In this document: in pieces, positions 3,645 through 59,890 of the stretch
How the letters are laid out: every line of letters starts with the position of its first letter
Position numbering within the stretch: the first letter of the stretch is position 1
IMG/VR virus record: IMGVR_UViG_3300025674_000023
Coordinates: 23,867-87,866 of that record
DNA: 64,000 bases
Direction: 5' to 3' (one strand)
Origin: a virus
The notes under the pieces: generated by a model
What the model was told of the DNA's origin: nothing
What the model saw: the letters and a program-made list of their open reading frames with translations, nothing else
The model's database searches: none
Made by a program: the position numbers and the translations under genes

Positions 3645-3880
3645 GAGCACGGACTGCTGACCAATACATTACATCCTTAAGGGTGTTGGCATCTATTGGC
3701 ATTATTACTTCTTACATCTTTACTTACTACATTGACAGTTTTATTGGTGCTTGTCTTGCACTTGGTAGCAATTTCTGTTCGTTGCCGTTTACTATCAGAA
3801 ACAAATACTGGGATGTAGTAGTTGTTTTATCCTTTGTTATTGTGATCACACTTACTAAAATTATTACTGATTTGAGATGA
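3641..3880 (+). CDS. Small membrane protein, unknown
   Basis: 79 aa with two or three hydrophobic stretches (LASIGIITSYIFTYYI; VVVVLSFVIVITLTKII), so a small integral membrane protein. ATGA overlap with gene 44 and with the next gene indicates translational coupling. No family recognised. Confidence 0.65.
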   Translation: MRARTADQYITSLRVLASIGIITSYIFTYYIDSFIGACLALGSNFCSLPFTIRNKYWDVVVVLSFVIVITLTKIITDLR

Positions 3881-4767
3881 AACTCTGGATGCTTGGCAAT
3901 CGTCTCACAACTGAGATGTATGAACGTGAAAGATTTATTGAAGAAGCAGATAAATATGGTATCGATTTTAATTTAGTCTTCGCAGACGAAATCGATCTTA
4001 TCGTTTCTAGAGATGACCGCAAATCAATTCGATATCGCAATGATATTGTTTCTCTCCCTGAGTGCTTACTGGCTCGTACTGGCTCTGGTACTGGGTATTT
4101 TAATCTCAGTGTTCTCAGACAGTTTGAAAGACTGAATGTTCTGACTCTACCAAACAGTCAATCAATAGAAGCATCAAAGGATAAGATGTATGCTAGTCAA
4201 ATTTTGGCTCAAGCAGGACTTCCTATTCCTAAAACAATGCTTACGAGGTTTCCCTGTAAAGCAGAGACTGTTGAGAAACAAGTTGGATTCCCTTGCGTTC
4301 TGAAAGTAGTAACAGGGTCTCATGGTGCTGGTGTTTATCTTTGTGAGAATGCCAAACAGTTTGAGGATTTGTCAGAACTTATTTCTTCTTTGGATTCTAA
4401 AAACTCTATGATTATTCAGGAGTATATTAGAGAATCTGAGGGAAGAGATCTTCGTGTCATCGTAATTGGGGGTAGAGTTGTCGGTGCCATGCAACGCACT
4501 TCTACAGACGGTTCGTTTAAAGCCAATATTTCCCGTGGAGGTAAAGGGGAATCTTACGATGTGGACGACGAAATGGAAATGCTTGCCATTCAAGTTGCAA
4601 AAGTTCTTGACCTTGACATTGCTGGTGTTGATTTACTATTTCATAATGACGGATACAAAATATGTGAAGCAAACTCATCCCCAGGATTTAAAGGGTTTGA
4701 GGAAGCATTAAATATTAATGTTCCTCAAAAAGTTTTTGATTATATTAAAATTAGATGTGGAGTGTGA
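3877..4767 (+). CDS. RimK-like ATP-grasp ligase
   Basis: 296 aa protein of the RimK/ATP-grasp fold. Visible landmarks are KDKMYASQILAQAGLPIPKT (start of the ATP-grasp domain), FPCVLKVVTGSHGAGV (ATP-binding Lys and Gly-rich loop), IIQEYI, GRDLRVIVIGGRVVGAMQR, and the metal-binding end CEANSSPGFKGFE. RimK enzymes add amino acids, usually glutamate, to proteins or small molecules. Substrate here is unknown; a phage-directed modification of a host or phage protein is a guess. It belongs to the block inserted between genes 44 and 62. Confidence 0.85.
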   Translation: MKLWMLGNRLTTEMYERERFIEEADKYGIDFNLVFADEIDLIVSRDDRKSIRYRNDIVSLPECLLARTGSGTGYFNLSVLRQFERLNVLTLPNSQSIEASKDKMYASQILAQAGLPIPKTMLTRFPCKAETVEKQVGFPCVLKVVTGSHGAGVYLCENAKQFEDLSELISSLDSKNSMIIQEYIRESEGRDLRVIVIGGRVVGAMQRTSTDGSFKANISRGGKGESYDVDDEMEMLAIQVAKVLDLDIAGVDLLFHNDGYKICEANSSPGFKGFEEALNINVPQKVFDYIKIRCGV

Positions 4768-43959: not shown

Positions 43960-45006
43960 ATGCCTCAATATGTCAAAAAAGCACTTATATTGGGTGCTGG
44001 TGGATTTATTGGAAGTCACATGGTCAAAAGACTCAAGTCTGAAGGATATTGGGTTCGTGGTGTAGATCTTAAAAGACCGGAATTTTCTGAAACTAAAGCA
44101 GACGAATTTATTCAAGGAGATTTACGTGATGTAGATTTTGTTCGTCGAGTTTTAGAATATAAGGGAGATCGAGGTAACTTCTACCATTCGGTTCCTTATC
44201 GTTATATTCAATGTTTTGATGAGATCTATCAGTTTGCTGCTGATATGGGTGGAGCAGGTTTCGTTTTTACTGGCGAAAACGATGCTGATATTATGCACAA
44301 TTCAGTTACTATTAATCTGAATGTGCTTGAATGTCAGCGCAAGATGAATGAAGAAAAGGGTAAAAATACTACCAAGATCTTCTACTCTGGATCTGCTTGT
44401 ATGTATCCTGAGCATAATCAACTCGATCCTGATAACCCAGATTGCCGTGAAGAATCCGCATATCCCGCAAATCCAGATTCGGAATATGGATGGGAAAAAC
44501 TTTTCTCAGAGCGTCTATACTTTGCCTACAATCGTAACTACGGTATTCCTGTACGTGTTGCTCGCTATCATAATATCTTTGGTCCGGAAGGCACCTGGGA
44601 CGGTGGAAGAGAGAAAGCACCAGCTGCAATCTGCCGCAAAGTTGCTCTCCTCCCGGAGTCAGGTGGATCTATCGAAGTGTGGGGAGACGGTCTACAAACT
44701 CGTTCCTTCCTGTACATTGATGAATGCATCGAAGCAACTAGAAGATTGATGGATAGCGACTTCATGGGACCTGTGAATATCGGTTCTGAAGAAATGGTCA
44801 CTATCAATCAATTGGTAGATACTGCTGCTAAAGTTGCTGGTAAGACTGTAGAGAAAAACCATATTGATGGTCCTCTTGGTGTTCGTGGTCGTAACTCTAA
44901 TAATGATTTGATTAGAGAAAAACTTGGTTGGGATTATTCACAGACACTAGAAGAAGGCATTCGTAAAACATACGAGTGGATTAACATACAGATTGAAAAA
45001 CGATGA
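43960..45006 (+). CDS. GDP-mannose 3,5-epimerase-like NAD-dependent epimerase
   Basis: 348 aa short-chain dehydrogenase fold. GAGGFIGSH binds NAD; YGWEK is the YxxxK catalytic pair; SGSACMYPEHNQL, GGREKAPAAICRK, GDGLQTRSFLYIDE and GVRGRNSNNDLI are signature blocks of plant-type GDP-mannose 3,5-epimerase, which makes GDP-L-galactose or GDP-gulose. First gene of the glycan cluster. Probably supplies a nucleotide sugar for host or phage surface glycans. Confidence 0.85.
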   Translation: MPQYVKKALILGAGGFIGSHMVKRLKSEGYWVRGVDLKRPEFSETKADEFIQGDLRDVDFVRRVLEYKGDRGNFYHSVPYRYIQCFDEIYQFAADMGGAGFVFTGENDADIMHNSVTINLNVLECQRKMNEEKGKNTTKIFYSGSACMYPEHNQLDPDNPDCREESAYPANPDSEYGWEKLFSERLYFAYNRNYGIPVRVARYHNIFGPEGTWDGGREKAPAAICRKVALLPESGGSIEVWGDGLQTRSFLYIDECIEATRRLMDSDFMGPVNIGSEEMVTINQLVDTAAKVAGKTVEKNHIDGPLGVRGRNSNNDLIREKLGWDYSQTLEEGIRKTYEWINIQIEKR

Positions 45007-45773
45007 TTTTTTATGTTCGCCTTCAGGGAGGTATGGGAAATCAAATGTTCCAATATGCTGCTGCTCTTTCTACTCTAAAAGAACATTCAGAGTTTAAAAA
45101 TTTTAAGATCGATACTTCTTTCTATCGTGGTCAAGAAAGAAAGGTGATTAAAAAAGGATTGACTGGTCGTGGTTATGATCTAAATCTTTTTAATGTTGAT
45201 CGTGAACTTGAGGATGCTCCTGAAGGTGCGGTATTACTGGAAGGTTGGTTTCAGAACTATAATGAGTTTAAAGTTGTAGAAAATGAGATCAGGAAACAAT
45301 TTGAATTTAAGATCAAATTTAATTTACATATTGAAGAGAAAAGACAGGAGATTCTTTCACAAGAAAACTCTGTAAGTATACATGTTCGTAGGGGAGACTT
45401 TATCAATAATCCTACTGCATTTAAACATAACTATCATATGGGCACTGATTACTATCAGAAATCTATGGAAATTTTGGAGGATAAATATGACACACTTACT
45501 TATTATGTTTTCTCTGAAGACATTGAATGGTGTAAAAAAAATATAAAAAATGACAAACAAGAAGTTGTTTATATTGGTAGTGCATATGATGGTCAACAAG
45601 ATTCTGGTCATATGTATTTGATGAGATCATGTAAAAATCATATCATTGCCAATAGCACATATAGTTGGTGGTCGGCTTTTCTTTCAAATACTAATACTGT
45701 TATTGGACCATCCAAATGGTTTACTAATGGAACTGGATCTGATATTATGTTAGACAATTGGATTATAATATGA
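45003..45773 (+). CDS. GT11 alpha-1,2-fucosyltransferase-like protein 1
   Basis: 256 aa. LQGGMGNQMFQYA, VSIHVRRGDF and IANSTYSWWSAFL are the GT11 motifs (the HxRRGDF box binds GDP-sugar). Starts by ATGA overlap with the epimerase, consistent with using its GDP-sugar. A second GT11 is at 59039. Confidence 0.88.
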   Translation: MIFYVRLQGGMGNQMFQYAAALSTLKEHSEFKNFKIDTSFYRGQERKVIKKGLTGRGYDLNLFNVDRELEDAPEGAVLLEGWFQNYNEFKVVENEIRKQFEFKIKFNLHIEEKRQEILSQENSVSIHVRRGDFINNPTAFKHNYHMGTDYYQKSMEILEDKYDTLTYYVFSEDIEWCKKNIKNDKQEVVYIGSAYDGQQDSGHMYLMRSCKNHIIANSTYSWWSAFLSNTNTVIGPSKWFTNGTGSDIMLDNWIII

Positions 45774-53142: not shown

Positions 53143-53811
53143 ATGTATACCATACCAGAGACTTGTCAGATTGATTGTCTGAATGACATCTATAACAAAT
53201 ATTTTGGGTATCCTTCTACTGGATATTTTGTAGAAGTTGGTGCCTATGATGGTGAGTTTGTTTCTAATACATCCTGCCTTGCTGATCACGGGTGGGAAGG
53301 ATTGTATATTGAACCAATTTATAATCACTATCAAAAGTGTTTGAGGCGTCATGATGCCAATAATGTAACAGTTGCTAATGTTGCTATTGGATTGGAAGAA
53401 GGTGAAACTACCATTTATTATGGTGATACATTGACCACGTTGGATCCTGAACAGGTTAATAGGTACAGTGAGATTGATTGGGCACAGCACATTAGTTTTT
53501 CTGAAACTACTTGTGATCAAATGCGCTTGGATACTTTGATGGAAAAGATCGAGGTTCCCAAGAACTTTGATGTTCTGGTTGTTGATGTTGAAGGTAAAGA
53601 AGCAGAAGTATTTGAAACCTTTGATCTTGATGAATGGAAACCAAAGATGATCATTGTTGAACTTGAGGATGAGCATCCATCATTCCAAAAGTATCCAGAA
53701 CTTCTTGAAAAGATTAAAACACTAAGAGGTTTCCTTCAAGAAAAGGGATATGTTGAAATCTTCAAGGATCATATCAATACAGTTCTAGTGAGAGAGGAAT
53801 TTAAAAAGTGA
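53143..53811 (+). CDS. FkbM-family methyltransferase 2
   Basis: 222 aa. FVEVGAYDGEFVSNTS, GLYIEPIYNHYQKC, VLVVDVEGKEAEVFETFD and KMIIVELEDEH follow the FkbM order. AAGGAG nine bases before the ATG. Two tandem FkbM genes suggest two methylation positions in the glycan. Confidence 0.87.
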   Translation: MYTIPETCQIDCLNDIYNKYFGYPSTGYFVEVGAYDGEFVSNTSCLADHGWEGLYIEPIYNHYQKCLRRHDANNVTVANVAIGLEEGETTIYYGDTLTTLDPEQVNRYSEIDWAQHISFSETTCDQMRLDTLMEKIEVPKNFDVLVVDVEGKEAEVFETFDLDEWKPKMIIVELEDEHPSFQKYPELLEKIKTLRGFLQEKGYVEIFKDHINTVLVREEFKK

Positions 53812-54503
53812 AAATTTGTATCTTGACCATTGCCACAAACAAGTACCTTCAGTTTGTGGAAAAACTGTATACTGATATCTCTGAAAAGTTTCTTCCTGGT
53901 GCAGAGATTAATTGCCTTCTTTTTACTGACCATGAGATTGAAGAAGCAGGTGATAATGTTAGGGTTCATTACATTGATCATGAACCCTGGCCAATGCCCA
54001 CTTTAAAGCGTTATAACTACTTTGTGAAGGAAAAGGATTTTATCCTGGAGCATGATTATTGCTTCTACTTCGATGCCGATATGCGGATTGATAATCCAGT
54101 TGGCGAAGAAGTTCTTGCTGATGGGGTTGTTGCCACAAAGCACCCATATCAATCATTCCATAGTGTGACTGATATGTCTTATGATCGCAACCCCGATTCA
54201 CTGGCATACGTTCCTATGGGTGAAGGGAACACATACTTTGCTGGTGGTTTTAACGGTGGTAAAACGGAAAGTTTTATGGAGATGGCAGAAGTTATTGCCA
54301 ATAATGTAAACAAAGATCTTGAGAAAGGTATTGTTGCACTCTGGCATGATGAAAGTCATATGAATCGTTATCTAATTGATAATCCTCCAGCATTAGAATT
54401 AACTCCTACTTATTGTTATGCTGAAGAATTCTATGGAACTAATTATCCATACGAACCCAAAATCATTGCTTTGAAGAAAAATCACAATGAACTTAGATCT
54501 TAG
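53808..54503 (+). CDS. GT6-like glycosyltransferase (ABO/alpha-1,3-Gal transferase family)
   Basis: 231 aa, GTG start in a GTGA overlap. LKRYNYFVKEKDFILEHDYCFYFDADM (shortened landmarks LKRY, YCFYFDADM) carries the D-x-D metal site; AGGFNGGKTESF and IVALWHDESHMNRYLID are GT6 hallmarks seen in mammalian ABO and alpha-1,3-galactosyltransferases. GT6 proteins occur in few bacteria and at least one cyanophage. No membrane anchor, as in bacterial members. Confidence 0.82.
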   Translation: MKICILTIATNKYLQFVEKLYTDISEKFLPGAEINCLLFTDHEIEEAGDNVRVHYIDHEPWPMPTLKRYNYFVKEKDFILEHDYCFYFDADMRIDNPVGEEVLADGVVATKHPYQSFHSVTDMSYDRNPDSLAYVPMGEGNTYFAGGFNGGKTESFMEMAEVIANNVNKDLEKGIVALWHDESHMNRYLIDNPPALELTPTYCYAEEFYGTNYPYEPKIIALKKNHNELRS

Positions 54504-55143
54504 AGAAATTCCCTTTTACTACATTAATCTTGATGATGCAGTAGGAAGAAGAGAAAGAACCGAATCCCAGTTAACAGAACTGGGTATCAAAAGTATTACT
54601 AGAATTCCTGCCATTCGCCATACTTATGGTGCTGCTGGAACCCCTAGATCAATGCTCAAGGCATTAGAACAGGCACACAATGGTCAACCATTTGTATTGA
54701 TGGAAGATGATGTTGCTGTTAAACGCTGGGAACCTATCATCGAAATTCCAGATGATTCCGATGCTTTTTATCTTGGTATTTCTGGGTGGGGAAGAATGAA
54801 TTCCCATTCAGGACCCTTTGTTCAATGGGAAAATGTTACTGATGATATTCTTCGTGTTTATAACATGTTGAGTGGTCATGCGATCATGTATATTTCTGAC
54901 CGCTATATTGACATAGCAAAGCGTATCGCCTATCATGCTGGATATAACATTGAGGATCATGTAGACATTGGATTTGCAGAGGTTCAGCGTTGGCATAATG
55001 TATATGCTTTTGATGATCCATATTTCTACCAAACAAGTTCTGGTGGAAATCAAACCGTAACTTATAGTCCACTCTCCGAACAAACATCGATGGAGTGTAT
55101 TACCTATATGAAACCTTATTATCTACCACAAAGAGTTATTTAA
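54487..55143 (+). CDS. GT25-like LPS glycosyltransferase 1
   Basis: 218 aa. FYYINLDDAVGRRERTESQL, ITRIPAIRH and FVLMEDDVAV match the start of GT25 (Lob1/LpsA type). Overlaps its neighbours by 17 bases and one base. Confidence 0.78.
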   Translation: MNLDLREIPFYYINLDDAVGRRERTESQLTELGIKSITRIPAIRHTYGAAGTPRSMLKALEQAHNGQPFVLMEDDVAVKRWEPIIEIPDDSDAFYLGISGWGRMNSHSGPFVQWENVTDDILRVYNMLSGHAIMYISDRYIDIAKRIAYHAGYNIEDHVDIGFAEVQRWHNVYAFDDPYFYQTSSGGNQTVTYSPLSEQTSMECITYMKPYYLPQRVI

Positions 55144-56090
55144 TGTATATTGCACATTGTCCTCTAAGAATCTCTCTGTTTGGGGGATCTACTGATAGTC
55201 CATATTTTGTTGAAAAATATGGGTATGGTTCTGTAATTAGTTTTGCATCTAATCTCAAAACCTATGTAACTGTTGGTAGAGATTTATTTGGTATTAATAA
55301 TCTGGATCATAAGTATCGTTTGAATTATTCAAAGCGAGAAGATGTTCATACCATTCCAGAAATTAAGAATGAGGTGATACGTGTTGTTCTAGAACACTTT
55401 AATATTGATCCAGTACAAATTAATCTTTTTGGTGATGCTTATTCACAGGGTAGTGGATTAGCATCATCTTCTTCATATATTATTAGTCTTATTAAAGCAG
55501 CATCGATGCTTTGTGATAAGAAGATGTCTGAGGTTGAGATGTGTGCTCTGGCATATAACTTAGAAAGAAAGTTTAATCCATACTGTGGGTATCAAGATCC
55601 TTATGGGTGTGGAGTTGGTGGATTTAAAAGAATTGAATTCTATCCCAAAGATAGAGTTACCTATGATTATCTACCATCATCTTTCTTTGATCCATATGAT
55701 ATTCACCTTATCTTTACTGGAGTGACAAGAAACTCCAAAGGTGTTCTCAAAGATGTAAGTTGCAATCTTGATAAGGTTAAGAATCTTCTTCCTATCGTTG
55801 ATGAAGCATATGATTCTATTGTTAATGAGAATCATATGCAAGTATTTGCTCTGATGAACGAATCGTGGGAACAGAAGAAAAAGACCAGTTCTATCATTAC
55901 AGAGAATGAAACCATTCAAGAAATGGATTTTGAATTAAGTTTCAACAAAACTGTTTTATCGCATAAACTATGTGGTGCAGGTAATGGTGGGTTCTTCTTG
56001 ACATTCTCTGAAAAAGGGCAGTTGAATATTCCATATCATTCTGTTAAAATAGAAGTATCGTCTCAAGGTGTATCGGGTCAAGAAGTATGA
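55143..56090 (+). CDS. hddA: Heptose 7-phosphate kinase-like GHMP kinase
   Basis: 315 aa. CPLRISLFGGSTDSPYFVEKYG and the ATP loop GSGLASSSSYIIS are the GHMP motifs seen in D-glycero-D-manno-heptose 7-phosphate kinase (HddA) and dehydratase-coupled sugar kinases; CGAGNGGFFLTF is the third motif. Phosphorylates heptose-7-P at C1. Next to gmhA and the HAD-transferase fusion, which secures the pathway assignment. Confidence 0.85.
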   Translation: MYIAHCPLRISLFGGSTDSPYFVEKYGYGSVISFASNLKTYVTVGRDLFGINNLDHKYRLNYSKREDVHTIPEIKNEVIRVVLEHFNIDPVQINLFGDAYSQGSGLASSSSYIISLIKAASMLCDKKMSEVEMCALAYNLERKFNPYCGYQDPYGCGVGGFKRIEFYPKDRVTYDYLPSSFFDPYDIHLIFTGVTRNSKGVLKDVSCNLDKVKNLLPIVDEAYDSIVNENHMQVFALMNESWEQKKKTSSIITENETIQEMDFELSFNKTVLSHKLCGAGNGGFFLTFSEKGQLNIPYHSVKIEVSSQGVSGQEV

Positions 56091-56590
56091 ATCCGTTTTG
56101 CGAATATGTAGATGCACTTAAATGTGCTCACATGGAAAGTGAGTTTCAAAAATTTAAGGAAGCATTTGAGGAGCATAAAAGAATTATCATCCTAGGTAAT
56201 GGTGGTAGCAATTCTGTTGCATCACATATCTCTCAGGATTATATGAAGTTTGGGAAGAAGAGAGTATCTATCTTTTCTGACCCATCTATGCTTACCATGC
56301 TTGCTAATGACTTTGGGTATGAAAATGCATATCTGAAGTTTTTGGAGTATCATGTTGAGAATGAAACGCTTGTTATTCTTATAAGTTCTGGTGGCGAATC
56401 TGAAAATATTATTAAGTGTCAAAAATATTGTGAAGAAAATGACATTGGATATGGTGTTCTCACTGGATTTTATCCGAATAATAGATTGAGAATAATGTCA
56501 AAGAAAGCACTATTTAACTATCATATATACAGCGAGTCTTATGGTGTTGTAGAATGTGTTCATCAAATTTTCCTCCATGGAGTAGTATGA
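56087..56590 (+). CDS. gmhA: Phosphoheptose isomerase
   Basis: 167 aa SIS-domain protein. ILGNGGSNSVASHISQDYMK and LVILISSGGESENII are the sugar-phosphate-binding loops of GmhA, which turns sedoheptulose 7-phosphate into glycero-manno-heptose 7-phosphate. ATGA overlaps with the kinase and the fusion enzyme. Confidence 0.88.
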   Translation: MNPFCEYVDALKCAHMESEFQKFKEAFEEHKRIIILGNGGSNSVASHISQDYMKFGKKRVSIFSDPSMLTMLANDFGYENAYLKFLEYHVENETLVILISSGGESENIIKCQKYCEENDIGYGVLTGFYPNNRLRIMSKKALFNYHIYSESYGVVECVHQIFLHGVV

Positions 56591-57315
56591 AATATTGCTT
56601 TGATTTGGACGGAACTATTTGCAACACTCCTTGTGATCCAGATGGTCATGGTCAAAGATACTGGGATTCGACACCAATTCCTTTTATGGTAGAAACAGTT
56701 AATCGTCTTTATGATGAAGGAAATTATATTATTATCATGACTGCCAGAGGTAGAGGATCTGGTAAAGATTGGACAGAACTTACCACTAATAGTCTTAAAG
56801 AATGGGGAGTTAACTATCATGAACTTGAACCTATGTTTCATAAACCAACAGCAGATCTCTTTATTGATGATAAGGGGATTAATGTAGAAGATTGGAAAAA
56901 AAGTTTGCCAACTAAAAAAGGAATTATTGCGGGTGCATTTGATATTATTCACCCAGGATATGTTAGATTGTTTAAGGAAGCAAAAGAACATTGTAATCAT
57001 CTTACAATAGCTCTTCATGAAGATCCTTCCATGGCAAGACCACACAAACTAAAACCTGTTCATAGTGTGGAGGAGAGAAAAGAAATACTTAAGTCTATTG
57101 AGTATATTGATGATATTGTAGTTTATCAAGCAGAAGAAACATTTTTAAGTTATCTTAAAAATTATGATATTCGATTTTTGGGAGATGACTATAGGGATGG
57201 TTCTTATACTGGTAAAGATAATCCTATAGATATTGTTTGGTTGGATAGATCTCATAATTATTCAACTACAAAATTAAAATTAAAAATTTATAATTCTATT
57301 CATGAGGTTTTATGA
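56587..57315 (+). CDS. HAD phosphatase fused to a nucleotidyltransferase (heptose branch)
   Basis: 242 aa two-domain protein. Residues 1-110: HAD phosphatase (FDLDGTICNT, IIMTARGRGSGKDW, ADLFIDDKG), equal in role to GmhB. Residues 115-242: cytidylyltransferase-type fold (IAGAFDIIHPGYVRLFKEAK, SVEERKEIL, STTKLK) like the HldE or TagD nucleotidyltransferase. The second His of the usual HxGH is Tyr here (HPGY). It would convert heptose-1,7-bisphosphate to an NDP-heptose in one polypeptide. Confidence 0.82.
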   Translation: MKYCFDLDGTICNTPCDPDGHGQRYWDSTPIPFMVETVNRLYDEGNYIIIMTARGRGSGKDWTELTTNSLKEWGVNYHELEPMFHKPTADLFIDDKGINVEDWKKSLPTKKGIIAGAFDIIHPGYVRLFKEAKEHCNHLTIALHEDPSMARPHKLKPVHSVEERKEILKSIEYIDDIVVYQAEETFLSYLKNYDIRFLGDDYRDGSYTGKDNPIDIVWLDRSHNYSTTKLKLKIYNSIHEVL

Positions 57316-57316
57316 T

Positions 57317-58204
57317 ATGATTAAAAGTATTGTAACGGGTGGATGCGGATTTATTGGATCGCATCTTGTCAATCGACTTGTCGATTTGGGTCATGAAGTT
57401 GTAGTATTGGATAGGGTTCATCATTATAATCCCAATCCAAAAGCAACTTATTATCTTTATAATCTTTCTGAGAATTATACAAAGTATATTCATCTTTTTG
57501 AAAGTGTCAATAATGTTTTTCATTTAGCATCAGAAGTTTCTATACCTTATTGTGTAGAAAAACCAAATGAAAGTATGGCAAACAATATTTTGTCTACTAT
57601 GAATGTTTTGGAATGTGCTAGAGTTCACAACATTGATAGGTTTGTATTTTCATCGACTTCTGCGGTTTATGGAAATACAATGTTTAATCCTAATTATGAG
57701 ACTAATAGTGTTCAATGTTTGAATACTTATTCTATCTCTAAGTATTCTGGTGAACAACTTTGTAAGATGTATTATGAACTTTATGGTCTTAAGACAGTAA
57801 TGTTTAGATACTTTAATGTGTTTGGTGAAGGGCAACATAAAACAGGGCAGTATGCTCCTGTAATGTCAATATTCAAAAGGCAGAAAGATAATAAAGAACC
57901 TCTAACAGTAGTAGAACCTGGATATCAAACCAGAGATTTTGTTCATGTCTCTGATGTTGTATATGCAAACATTCTTGCCTCACAGAGAGAACTTGAAAAT
58001 TATGGTGAAATATTTAATATTGGAACAGGAATCGGAACAGAGATACAAGATGTCGCAGATTTAATTTCGGATTACCAAATTAAAATACCTCAAAGATCTG
58101 GAGAAGTTTTGCATTCTACTGCAAATATTGATAAGGCAAAAAGTATTTTGGGGTGGAAATGGAGTATAAATGTTATGGATTGGGTTAAAAGGAATTTAAA
58201 ATGA
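57317..58204 (+). CDS. NAD-dependent sugar epimerase/dehydratase
   Basis: 295 aa. TGGCGFIGSHLVNRL, FSSTSAVYGNT, TYSISKYSGEQLC (YxxxK), RYFNVFGEGQ and RDFVHVSDVVYA. UDP-glucose 4-epimerase-like group. Just after the NDP-heptose enzymes, so heptose conversion is possible; sugar specificity cannot be read. Confidence 0.87.
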   Translation: MIKSIVTGGCGFIGSHLVNRLVDLGHEVVVLDRVHHYNPNPKATYYLYNLSENYTKYIHLFESVNNVFHLASEVSIPYCVEKPNESMANNILSTMNVLECARVHNIDRFVFSSTSAVYGNTMFNPNYETNSVQCLNTYSISKYSGEQLCKMYYELYGLKTVMFRYFNVFGEGQHKTGQYAPVMSIFKRQKDNKEPLTVVEPGYQTRDFVHVSDVVYANILASQRELENYGEIFNIGTGIGTEIQDVADLISDYQIKIPQRSGEVLHSTANIDKAKSILGWKWSINVMDWVKRNLK

Positions 58205-59052
58205 AAGTAACTATTCTTGGATCAAGTGGTCAAATTGGGGCATATTTAACTGAGTATCTTCGTGGTAAAAATCATGAGGTAACTGAGTTTGATGTTGCTC
58301 GTCATCACGGTGAAGACCTTACGCAGATTCCAAATTATAATTTAGACCGTGTTATTAAGAATTCAGACTTTGTATTCTTTCTTGCTTTTGATGTTGGTGG
58401 TTCTCGATATCTAAAAAAATATCAACATACTTTTAAGTTTATTGATAATAATACTCGTATGATGGCGAATGTTTTTGGATTACTTCAAGAATATAATAAA
58501 AGATTTGTATTTGCATCATCTCAAATGAGTAACATGAGTTATTCTCCTTATGGAGTAATGAAACGTGTTGGTGAACTTTATACAAAATCACTCAATGGAT
58601 TAATTGTAAAGTTTTGGAATGTATATGGAGTTGAAAAGGATTATGAAAAATCTCATGTAATTACAGATTTTATTCGTAGAGGATTTGAAGAAGGTCAATT
58701 TGAAATGCTAACTGACGGAACAGAAGAACGTCAGTTTTTATATGCTGAAGATTGTTGTGAAGCTCTTGAAGTGATTATGAATAATTACACAGATTTTACA
58801 TCAGAGGATCAACTTCACATTACTTCTTTCAATTCAACTACAATTAAAAACATTGCTCATATTATTCAGGGTCAATTTAATTTGATTGGCAGACATGATG
58901 TTAAAATTATTCCAGGTGCTGCAAAAGATAGTGTTCAGATGGATAAGAGGAATGAAGCAGACTTATACATAACAAAATGGTGGATGCCAAAAACTACCAT
59001 AGATAATGGAATTGCAAAAGTATTTGAGGAAATGAAACATGATTGGATTTAA
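58201..59052 (+). CDS. NAD-dependent epimerase, divergent
   Basis: 283 aa. ILGSSGQIGAYLTEYL cofactor loop, SSQMSNMSYSPYGVMKRVGE supplies the Ser and YxxxK, FWNVYGVEKDY. Shorter and more divergent than its neighbour. Its last 14 bases overlap the next gene. Confidence 0.8.
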   Translation: MKVTILGSSGQIGAYLTEYLRGKNHEVTEFDVARHHGEDLTQIPNYNLDRVIKNSDFVFFLAFDVGGSRYLKKYQHTFKFIDNNTRMMANVFGLLQEYNKRFVFASSQMSNMSYSPYGVMKRVGELYTKSLNGLIVKFWNVYGVEKDYEKSHVITDFIRRGFEEGQFEMLTDGTEERQFLYAEDCCEALEVIMNNYTDFTSEDQLHITSFNSTTIKNIAHIIQGQFNLIGRHDVKIIPGAAKDSVQMDKRNEADLYITKWWMPKTTIDNGIAKVFEEMKHDWI

Positions 59053-59890
59053 TCATATTGGAACAATGGGAAGATTTGGAAATCAAATGTTTCAATATGC
59101 AGCATTAAAGGGAATTGCTGCAAATCGAGGATTTGATTATACGATTCCTCCAGAAAAACCTGATGTTCAAATTGACAATTATGGGTTATTGGAAGCGTTT
59201 GAACTGAATACTAATAAAAATGTAGGATGGATTAATACTAAAAATTTAGTTCAAGAAAGACATTTTCATTTTGATGAATTCATATTTAATCAATGCCCAG
59301 ATGAAGTAACTATTCATGGATTCTTTCAATCTGAAAAATATTTTAAACATATTGAGGGTGACATTAGAAAAGATTTTACTTTTAAAAATAACTGGCTAGA
59401 ACCCTGTAAAGAGTTTCGAAAGCAACTAGGAGATGAAGTTATCTTCCTTCATGTTCGAAGAGGTGATCCGAATCTTGCTGATAAGAGAGGATTTAAGTGG
59501 GCTTATGTAAATCTTCAAAGCACTCATCCAGTGCAACCTTTGGAATATTATCAAAAAGCACTTGCAGAATTTGATGATAGTCTTCCTGTAGTTGTTTTTT
59601 CTGATGCTATTGATTGGTGTAAAGAACAAGAATTTTTTAAAAGTGATCGATTTATGTTCTCTGAGCCAGAAGATAAACATTCTGATGGCGCATTAGTTCC
59701 ATATCTTGACTTATGCTTGATGTCTCTATGTGATCATGCTATTATTGCTAATAGTTCTATGTCATGGTGGGGTGCCTGGTTGATTCAAAATCCAAATAAA
59801 AAAGTCATAGCACCAAGTATGTGGTTTGGATCTGATTATGCTGACAAAGATACTAAAGACTTATATTGTGAGAATTGGAAGGTTATCTAA
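59039..59890 (+). CDS. GT11 fucosyltransferase-like protein 2
   Basis: 283 aa. GTMGRFGNQMFQYAALKGI, VIFLHVRRGDPNLA and IANSSMSWWGAWLI are GT11 motifs. Divergent from the 45003 copy (HVRRGDP instead of HVRRGDF). Likely adds fucose or a related deoxy or galacto sugar. Confidence 0.87.
   Translation: MIGFNHIGTMGRFGNQMFQYAALKGIAANRGFDYTIPPEKPDVQIDNYGLLEAFELNTNKNVGWINTKNLVQERHFHFDEFIFNQCPDEVTIHGFFQSEKYFKHIEGDIRKDFTFKNNWLEPCKEFRKQLGDEVIFLHVRRGDPNLADKRGFKWAYVNLQSTHPVQPLEYYQKALAEFDDSLPVVVFSDAIDWCKEQEFFKSDRFMFSEPEDKHSDGALVPYLDLCLMSLCDHAIIANSSMSWWGAWLIQNPNKKVIAPSMWFGSDYADKDTKDLYCENWKVI

What the first reader, a model, noticed from the sequence alone, without database searches (positions are those of the whole stretch)
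55143..57315. Complete heptose activation pathway in three overlapping phage genes
GHMP heptose kinase, GmhA isomerase, and a HAD phosphatase-nucleotidyltransferase fusion together convert sedoheptulose 7-phosphate to an NDP-heptose. All junctions are ATGA or TAATG overlaps. Sedoheptulose 7-phosphate is a Calvin and pentose-phosphate intermediate, so the phage taps carbon flow it is known to alter. The phosphatase-transferase fusion with HPGY in place of HxGH is unusual.
Basis: partly seen in the sequence, partly recalled or inferred. Interest (0 to 1): 0.75.

Follow-up and report, generated by a model that had tools for sequence, protein, structure and literature searches.

The report
Cyanophage cassette for activating heptose sugar
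A virus of ocean cyanobacteria carries a compact set of overlapping genes that most likely turns a sugar phosphate of its host's carbon cycle into an activated seven-carbon sugar, which the host group does not normally put on its surface; related viruses carry the same set, and part of it was reported before.

Summary
In a psbA-bearing T4-like cyanophage contig, three genes with 4-base overlaps encode an HddA-like GHMP kinase (55143-56090), a GmhA-like isomerase (56087-56590) and a HAD phosphatase-nucleotidyltransferase fusion (56587-57315). An SDR epimerase follows. Together they cover the four steps from sedoheptulose 7-phosphate to an NDP-heptose. All three genes are under purifying selection. 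Of 51 related phage fusion genes with enough flanking DNA, 48 keep kinase, isomerase and SDR nearby; five of these loci add a transaldolase, which makes or uses sedoheptulose 7-phosphate. The heptose reading is well supported but not proven. The cassette is not new to phages: cultured cyanophage SynMITS9220M01 carries it, and its 2020 announcement named three of the genes as heptose genes, but not the fusion that supplies the last two steps. Newly seen here: HPGY is a subfamily trait (54 of 60 fusions). The isomerase has a remodelled active site (E68 to D, Q175 to E, D61 to V); Q175E alone inactivates a bacterial GmhA. An HddA-type kinase is paired with a TagD/HldC-type nucleotidyltransferase, so CTP or ATP stays open. 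Cyanobacterial LPS lacks heptose, so the phage would import a foreign sugar.

The parts
55143..56090 (+). GHMP-family sugar-1-kinase, HddA/WcbL-like (predicted D-glycero-D-manno-heptose 7-phosphate 1-kinase). R9, D18, E141, Q151, D152 invariant in the 17-member alignment; Ser16 where fucokinase FKP has Trp599
   Evidence: NF049969 E 2e-25, below cut-off; C. jejuni 4n3o E 6e-34; WcbL 4usm E 3e-31; FKP 7e-20
56087..56590 (+). SIS-domain isomerase, GmhA-like, with remodelled active site (H47 and H164 kept; V44, D51, E156 in place of D61, E68, Q175)
   Evidence: TIGR00441 E 2e-13, below cut-off; best fold match GmhA 5i01, TM 0.89
56587..56895 (+). N-terminal HAD phosphatase domain of the fusion (D6xD8xT10, T52, K86, D94D95 invariant); predicted heptose 1,7-bisphosphate 7-phosphatase, not of the GmhB family by any hit seen
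   Evidence: phrog_1238 E 3e-27; 9iqw E 2e-22
56917..57312 (+). C-terminal nucleotidyltransferase domain (TagD/HldC type); motif R221-x-H223-x-Y-S-T-T
   Evidence: phrog_7878 E 4e-30; TagD 1coz/2b7l TM 0.84, HldC 5xf2 TM 0.70
56950..56961 (+). HPGY in place of the HxGH motif
   Evidence: 54 of 60 distinct HAD-fused homologues
57317..58204 (+). SDR nucleotide-sugar epimerase, GalE-like, immediately downstream; homologues follow the cassette in most related loci; HldD-type Lys178 not a family feature
   Evidence: best PDB 4zrm E 1e-44
58201..59052 (+). second SDR (GDP-fucose-synthase-like C-terminal half), probable accessory nucleotide-sugar enzyme
54487..55143 (+). upstream gene, probable glycosyltransferase (no Pfam hit), linked to the kinase in L024, L029, L043, L046, L071

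Best explanation
The cassette is a self-contained phage route to an NDP-heptose. Step 1 (inferred): the SIS isomerase converts D-sedoheptulose 7-phosphate to D-glycero-D-manno-heptose 7-phosphate. Step 2 (inferred): the GHMP kinase phosphorylates carbon 1. Step 3 (inferred): the HAD half of the fusion removes the 7-phosphate. Step 4 (inferred): the nucleotidyltransferase half joins the 1-phosphate to CTP or ATP; putting steps 3 and 4 on one chain would pass heptose 1-phosphate directly on. The SDR then probably epimerises the NDP-heptose, and the glycosyltransferases and methyltransferases of the surrounding cluster (43.9-60.7 kb) attach and decorate it on a surface glycan of the infected cell or on the virion. 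Shown here: gene identity, conserved HAD and kinase catalytic residues, conserved gene set, purifying selection. Not shown: substrate, nucleotide, end product, biological use.
For: All four chemistries are present in adjacent, overlapping genes. Kinase: the four best PDB matches are two HddA-type heptose kinases and two entries of the heptokinase WcbL, well ahead of fucokinase, mevalonate kinase and galactokinase; Ser16 replaces the fucose-stacking Trp of FKP, whose loss costs FKP more than 3000-fold. Isomerase: 13 of 15 sequence matches and nearly all of the top 36 fold matches are GmhA, the rest DiaA. HAD: complete motif set, invariant. NT: TagD and HldC folds. Context: 48 of 51 evaluable loci keep kinase, isomerase, fusion and SDR. 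Five sister loci insert a transaldolase (PF00923, E 1e-34 in L033), whose reaction makes or consumes sedoheptulose 7-phosphate. A 595-kb phage fuses GHMP kinase to the same NT. The same HAD family sits beside a PfkB-type kinase and NT in P-SSM2. dN/dS 0.03-0.20.
Against: No protein reaches the equivalog cut-off for its heptose model. The isomerase carries Glu at the Gln175 position, a change that alone made B. pseudomallei GmhA inactive, and Val at Asp61, where D61A leaves 6% (PMC5705639). The NT lacks the second His of HxGH; in NadD the equivalent H19A leaves 0.62% (PMC1249556). No GT9 heptosyltransferase and no transaldolase in this record. P-SSM2, S-CAM3 and LR756511, which have kinase plus NT, have no GmhA-like gene, so the HAD/NT pair need not always serve a GmhA product.
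Confidence: 0.7

Rival explanations
1. Same chemistry, different sugar: the cassette isomerises, 1-phosphorylates, dephosphorylates and nucleotidylates a hexose, pentose or other ketose phosphate rather than sedoheptulose 7-phosphate.
For: All three proteins fall below heptose equivalog cut-offs. The isomerase active site differs at three functional positions, two of them invariant in all 18 relatives. The TRNSK segment of the kinase recalls fucokinase FKP (own comparison from memory, weak).
Against: Nearest solved relatives of kinase and isomerase are heptose enzymes; transaldolase inside sister cassettes; the same D/E isomerase pair occurs in phage Cr30 beside an HddA-like kinase; FKP's fucose-binding Trp is absent.
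Confidence: 0.2
2. The route stops short of an NDP-sugar or the NT half is inactive (HPGY); the phage uses heptose phosphates, or only the phosphatase and kinase.
For: Loss of the second HxGH histidine, which is catalytically important in studied enzymes.
Against: HPGY is conserved in 54 of 60 fusions and in about 50 standalone phage NTs, while F118, D119, H122, G124, R164, D201, R221, H223, S226 are invariant in the fusion alignment; purifying selection; an NDP-sugar SDR follows.
Confidence: 0.07
3. The genes replace or boost a host heptose pathway and make the host's normal LPS core heptose.
For: In most Gram-negative bacteria this pathway feeds the LPS core (established knowledge; PMC4390846).
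Against: Heptoses and KDO are reported absent from cyanobacterial LPS (PMC4390846); the GmhA model does not ring in the S. elongatus control genome; no GT9 gene in this record; no HldD-type epimerase signature in the SDR family.
Confidence: 0.03

Closest known systems
Synechococcus phage SynMITS9220M01 genes 204-207 (MT408532; PMC7378029)
   Same: Same four genes in the same order; 61% (kinase), 80% (isomerase), 79% (fusion), 50% (SDR) identity. Authors list kinase, isomerase and epimerase as heptose-related LPS genes.
   Different: There the fusion is annotated hypothetical protein, so the phosphatase and nucleotidyltransferase steps were not recognised. Gene 207 is labelled a heptose 6-epimerase, but this SDR family lacks the HldD Lys178 position.
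[quoted passage not shown] Kneidinger 2001, cited in PMC7378029)
   Same: GmhA-like isomerase and HddA-like GHMP kinase.
   Different: No HddC-type (NTP_transferase) enzyme among the three genes; nucleotidyltransferase is TagD/HldC type; phosphatase belongs to another HAD family and is fused to it.
ADP-L-glycero-beta-D-manno-heptose pathway (GmhA-HldE-GmhB-HldD)
   Same: HldE-C/HldC-like nucleotidyltransferase fold; isomerase.
   Different: Kinase is GHMP, not PfkB; fusion partner of the NT is a phosphatase, not the kinase; SDR is GalE-like.
P-SSM2 / S-CAM3 sugar cassette
   Same: Homologous HAD and a TagD-like nucleotidyltransferase beside a sugar kinase.
   Different: PfkB-type kinase (tested in P-SSM2), separate HAD and NT genes, HPGH motif, and no GmhA-like gene in those records.
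Caulobacter phage Cr30
   Same: HddA-like kinase next to a GmhA-like isomerase with the same D/E active-site pair.
   Different: NT encoded elsewhere in the genome; no HAD fusion seen in the fetched stretch.

Membership tests
HddA heptose 7-phosphate kinase | GHMP fold and catalytic residues (R, D, E, QD) | tested here: met
HddA heptose 7-phosphate kinase | NCBIfam equivalog cut-off (600 bits) | tested here: not met
   90 bits; no control genome passes it either
HddA heptose 7-phosphate kinase | Phosphorylates heptose 7-phosphate at C1 | not testable with these tools
   needs assay
GmhA sedoheptulose 7-phosphate isomerase | GmhA-type SIS fold | tested here: met
   TM 0.89 to 5i01
GmhA sedoheptulose 7-phosphate isomerase | Catalytic/zinc residues H64, E68, Q175, H183 and D61 (B. 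pseudomallei numbering) | tested here: not met
   H64 and H183 kept; E68 to D, Q175 to E, D61 to V
GmhA sedoheptulose 7-phosphate isomerase | TIGR00441 cut-off (209 bits) | tested here: not met
   50.5 bits
GmhB-type heptose bisphosphate phosphatase | Match to a GmhB family model | tested here: not met
   no GmhB model at E 0.01; phrog_1238/9iqw family instead
GmhB-type heptose bisphosphate phosphatase | HAD catalytic motifs I-IV | tested here: met
   D6, D8, T10, T52, K86, D94, D95 invariant
HldE-C/HldC or TagD nucleotidyltransferase | Fold | tested here: met
   TagD TM 0.84, HldC TM 0.70
HldE-C/HldC or TagD nucleotidyltransferase | HxGH signature | tested here: not met
   HPGY; sister fusions have HAGH/HSGH
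HldE-C/HldC or TagD nucleotidyltransferase | Nucleotide specificity (CTP RTEGIST signature or HldC-like) | tested here: inconclusive
   RSHNYSTT: Arg as in TagD (RTEGISTT), His as in HldC (FEHDRSTT)
HldD ADP-heptose 6-epimerase (downstream SDR) | Lys178 in the GHK segment (recalled from memory) | tested here: inconclusive
   homologues have GERSP..G; the window alone has GEGQHK, with a Lys nearby; 109 bits against cut-off 275

The most novel reading that the evidence does not exclude
Phages evolved their own non-orthologous route to an NDP-heptose (swapped-residue isomerase, HddA-type kinase, a HAD phosphatase outside GmhB fused to an HPGY nucleotidyltransferase), giving a nucleotide-heptose combination not made by either known bacterial route, and use it to place a sugar absent from cyanobacterial LPS on infected cells or virions, for example to block superinfection.
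Probability: 0.3. Interest if true: 0.7.

Novelty: new variant of a known kind. Interest (0 to 1): 0.48.

Why it matters
If right, a photosynthesis-altering phage diverts sedoheptulose 7-phosphate, a Calvin and pentose phosphate intermediate, into a surface sugar its host group is reported to lack. That is a concrete chemical output to look for in infected cells. The isomerase and nucleotidyltransferase also pose clean enzymology questions: both families keep, under selection, residues whose counterparts inactivate or cripple well-studied bacterial relatives.

Tried and rejected
Near-identity DNA search of the region against phages: no match. Cellular homologues of the fusion: one weak NT-only hit in 84,980 genomes (L073; the query was a single sequence, so only close relatives are found). 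HldD identity of the downstream SDR: not supported. P-SSM2 'phosphoheptose isomerase' as support: rejected, that gene is the HAD and the record has no GmhA-like gene. Using monomer models to test the isomerase active site: not possible, since the site lies between protomers in GmhA. Standalone HPGY NTs as a guide to substrate: neighbours are mainly SDRs and what look like replication genes, not informative. Three first family searches and two first structure jobs failed on coordinates or input rules and were repeated. A first count of the gene set missed overlapping genes and was redone.

Full report
What was checked. The window is bases 23867-87866 of an 87,866-base IMG/VR virus record. It carries photosystem II D1 (psbA), a phosphate transporter subunit, UvsX, DNA polymerase, DnaB-like helicase and ribonucleotide reductase, so it is a T4-like cyanophage. 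The fusion's true start is 56587 (conserved MKYCFD in homologues).

Identity of the proteins. The kinase profile finds the C. jejuni heptose 7-phosphate kinase structure 4n3o (E 6e-34), WcbL (4usm, 3e-31; that 4usm is WcbL is from own knowledge) and 3k85 (4e-31), before fucokinase FKP (7e-20), mevalonate kinase and galactokinase. WcbL is a characterised heptokinase (PMC4691232). By the FKP structure paper (PMC11982464) the base Asp762, Gln761, Arg592 and Asp601 correspond, by motif, to D152, Q151, R9 and D18, which are invariant; Trp599, needed for fucose, corresponds to Ser16. The isomerase profile finds phosphoheptose isomerases and then DiaA, and its AlphaFold model (pLDDT 91.5) matches GmhA 5i01 at TM 0.89. 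The fusion model (pLDDT 90.3, pTM 0.83) matches TagD (TM 0.84) and HldC (TM 0.70) over its second half; its first half is a HAD domain of the 9iqw and phrog_1238 family with motifs I-IV intact.

Conservation and context. Scans of viral contigs gave 37, 30 and 80 loci. Among 60 distinct HAD-NT fusions, 51 have enough DNA on both sides; 48 of these have a GHMP kinase, a GmhA-like SIS gene and an SDR within 5 kb. Some loci were fetched with the kinase as query, which biases the count upward for the kinase. Five loci (L033, L035, L036, L039, L042) belong to a sister group with a different SIS and GHMP kinase and contain a transaldolase (Pfam PF00923, E 1e-34 in L033). In established biochemistry transaldolase interconverts sedoheptulose 7-phosphate and glyceraldehyde 3-phosphate with erythrose 4-phosphate and fructose 6-phosphate. 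This is the strongest independent hint that the starting sugar is sedoheptulose 7-phosphate. The 595-kb phage LR756511 has a 458-aa protein that joins the GHMP kinase to the HPGY nucleotidyltransferase, the layout of HldE rebuilt with another kinase family. Purifying selection acts on all three genes: dN/dS 0.03-0.10 (kinase), 0.06-0.17 (isomerase), 0.10-0.20 (fusion).

Two active-site departures. First, the isomerase. In B. pseudomallei GmhA the important residues include H64, E68, Q175 and H183, and D61 couples active sites; Q175E is described as inactive and D61A has 6% activity (PMC5705639; roles also in PMC7705670). The phage isomerases keep both histidines but have D51 for E68, E156 for Q175 and V44 for D61. 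D51 and E156 are invariant across 18 relatives. The same D/E pair appears in the Cr30 isomerase and in the sister SIS family wherever the region is covered. Co-variation in separate subfamilies suggests a coherent alternative metal site rather than decay. It could equally mark a changed substrate. Second, HPGY. It is present in 54 of 60 fusions and in about 50 standalone phage nucleotidyltransferases; most sister fusions have HAGH or HSGH, and P-SSM2 and S-CAM3 have HPGH. So it is a clade trait. In NadD, replacing the second His leaves 0.62% activity (PMC1249556). The other signature residues are invariant, so an active enzyme with an altered site is more likely than a dead one.

Nucleotide. 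The cytidylyltransferase signature RTEG(I/V)ST(S/T) (PMC6060094) aligns with RSHNYSTT here. HldC has FEHDRSTT. The phage sequence shares Arg with the first and His with the second, so CTP and ATP both remain possible; GTP is not excluded.

What it does. The four chemistries, in overlapping genes inside a cluster that also holds GT2, GT4-like, GT6, GT11 and GT25 glycosyltransferases and FkbM and other methyltransferases, make an NDP-heptose for a surface glycan the best reading. Cyanobacterial LPS is reported to lack heptose (PMC4390846), and the GmhA model does not ring in the S. elongatus control genome. The phage would thus bring the whole pathway because the host has none. No GT9 heptosyltransferase is in this record, so classical LPS core synthesis is unlikely. 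The purpose (receptor masking, virion decoration, other) is not addressed by the data.

Prior knowledge and novelty. The announcement of SynMITS9220M01 (PMC7378029) lists heptose kinase, phosphoheptose isomerase and heptose epimerase among host-acquired genes; the same four-gene order is in that record, with the fusion annotated hypothetical. A long-read metagenomics paper calls gmhA a well-characterized phage auxiliary gene (PMC9238414). So the theme is known. New here are the assignment of the fusion to the two missing steps, the mixed HddA plus TagD/HldC composition, the remodelled isomerase, the clade-wide HPGY, the transaldolase-bearing sister cassette, and the correction of misleading labels.

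Limits. Substrate and nucleotide are inferred. Host genomes of marine picocyanobacteria could not be searched. The record may be incomplete, so absent genes may lie outside it.

Noticed in passing
window 53808-54503: Family 6 glycosyltransferase (Pfam E 1e-33; NF041524 199 bits, below its cut-off of 250), the family of the ABO blood-group enzymes, in the same cluster as two GT11 fucosyltransferase-like genes (45003-45773, 59039-59890): possibly a fucosylated, blood-group-like glycan.
   Followed up: no
L002 5941-7944 (SynMITS9220M01 genes 196-198): A second, different sugar-activation set: GHMP kinase, cupin (weakly lyxose-isomerase-like) and NTP_transferase nucleotidyltransferase.
   Followed up: partly
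L005 5983-7359 (LR756511, 595-kb phage): GHMP kinase and HPGY nucleotidyltransferase fused in one 458-aa frame, followed by an SDR; no GmhA-like gene in the record.
   Followed up: partly
L033 7420-10413; also L035, L036, L039, L042: Sister cassette with transaldolase, a second SIS subfamily and a second GHMP kinase beside a HAD-NT fusion; the nucleotidyltransferase motif is HAGH or HSGH in four of the five, HPGY in L042.
   Followed up: partly
L003 7086-7430; L004 6086-6406; phrog_1238: 'Phosphoheptose isomerase' label in cyanophage records sits on a HAD-family protein, not on an isomerase.
   Followed up: yes
L080: One viral contig carries a PfkB kinase plus nucleotidyltransferase as well as the GHMP/SIS/HAD-NT cassette.
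   Followed up: no
L086-L154 (about 50 contigs): Standalone HPGY nucleotidyltransferases in phages, often beside SDR epimerases and what look like T4-type replication genes (neighbours not annotated).
   Followed up: partly
window 3877-4767: Homologue of ribosomal protein S6 glutaminyl transferase (phrog_2599, E 3e-64).
   Followed up: no
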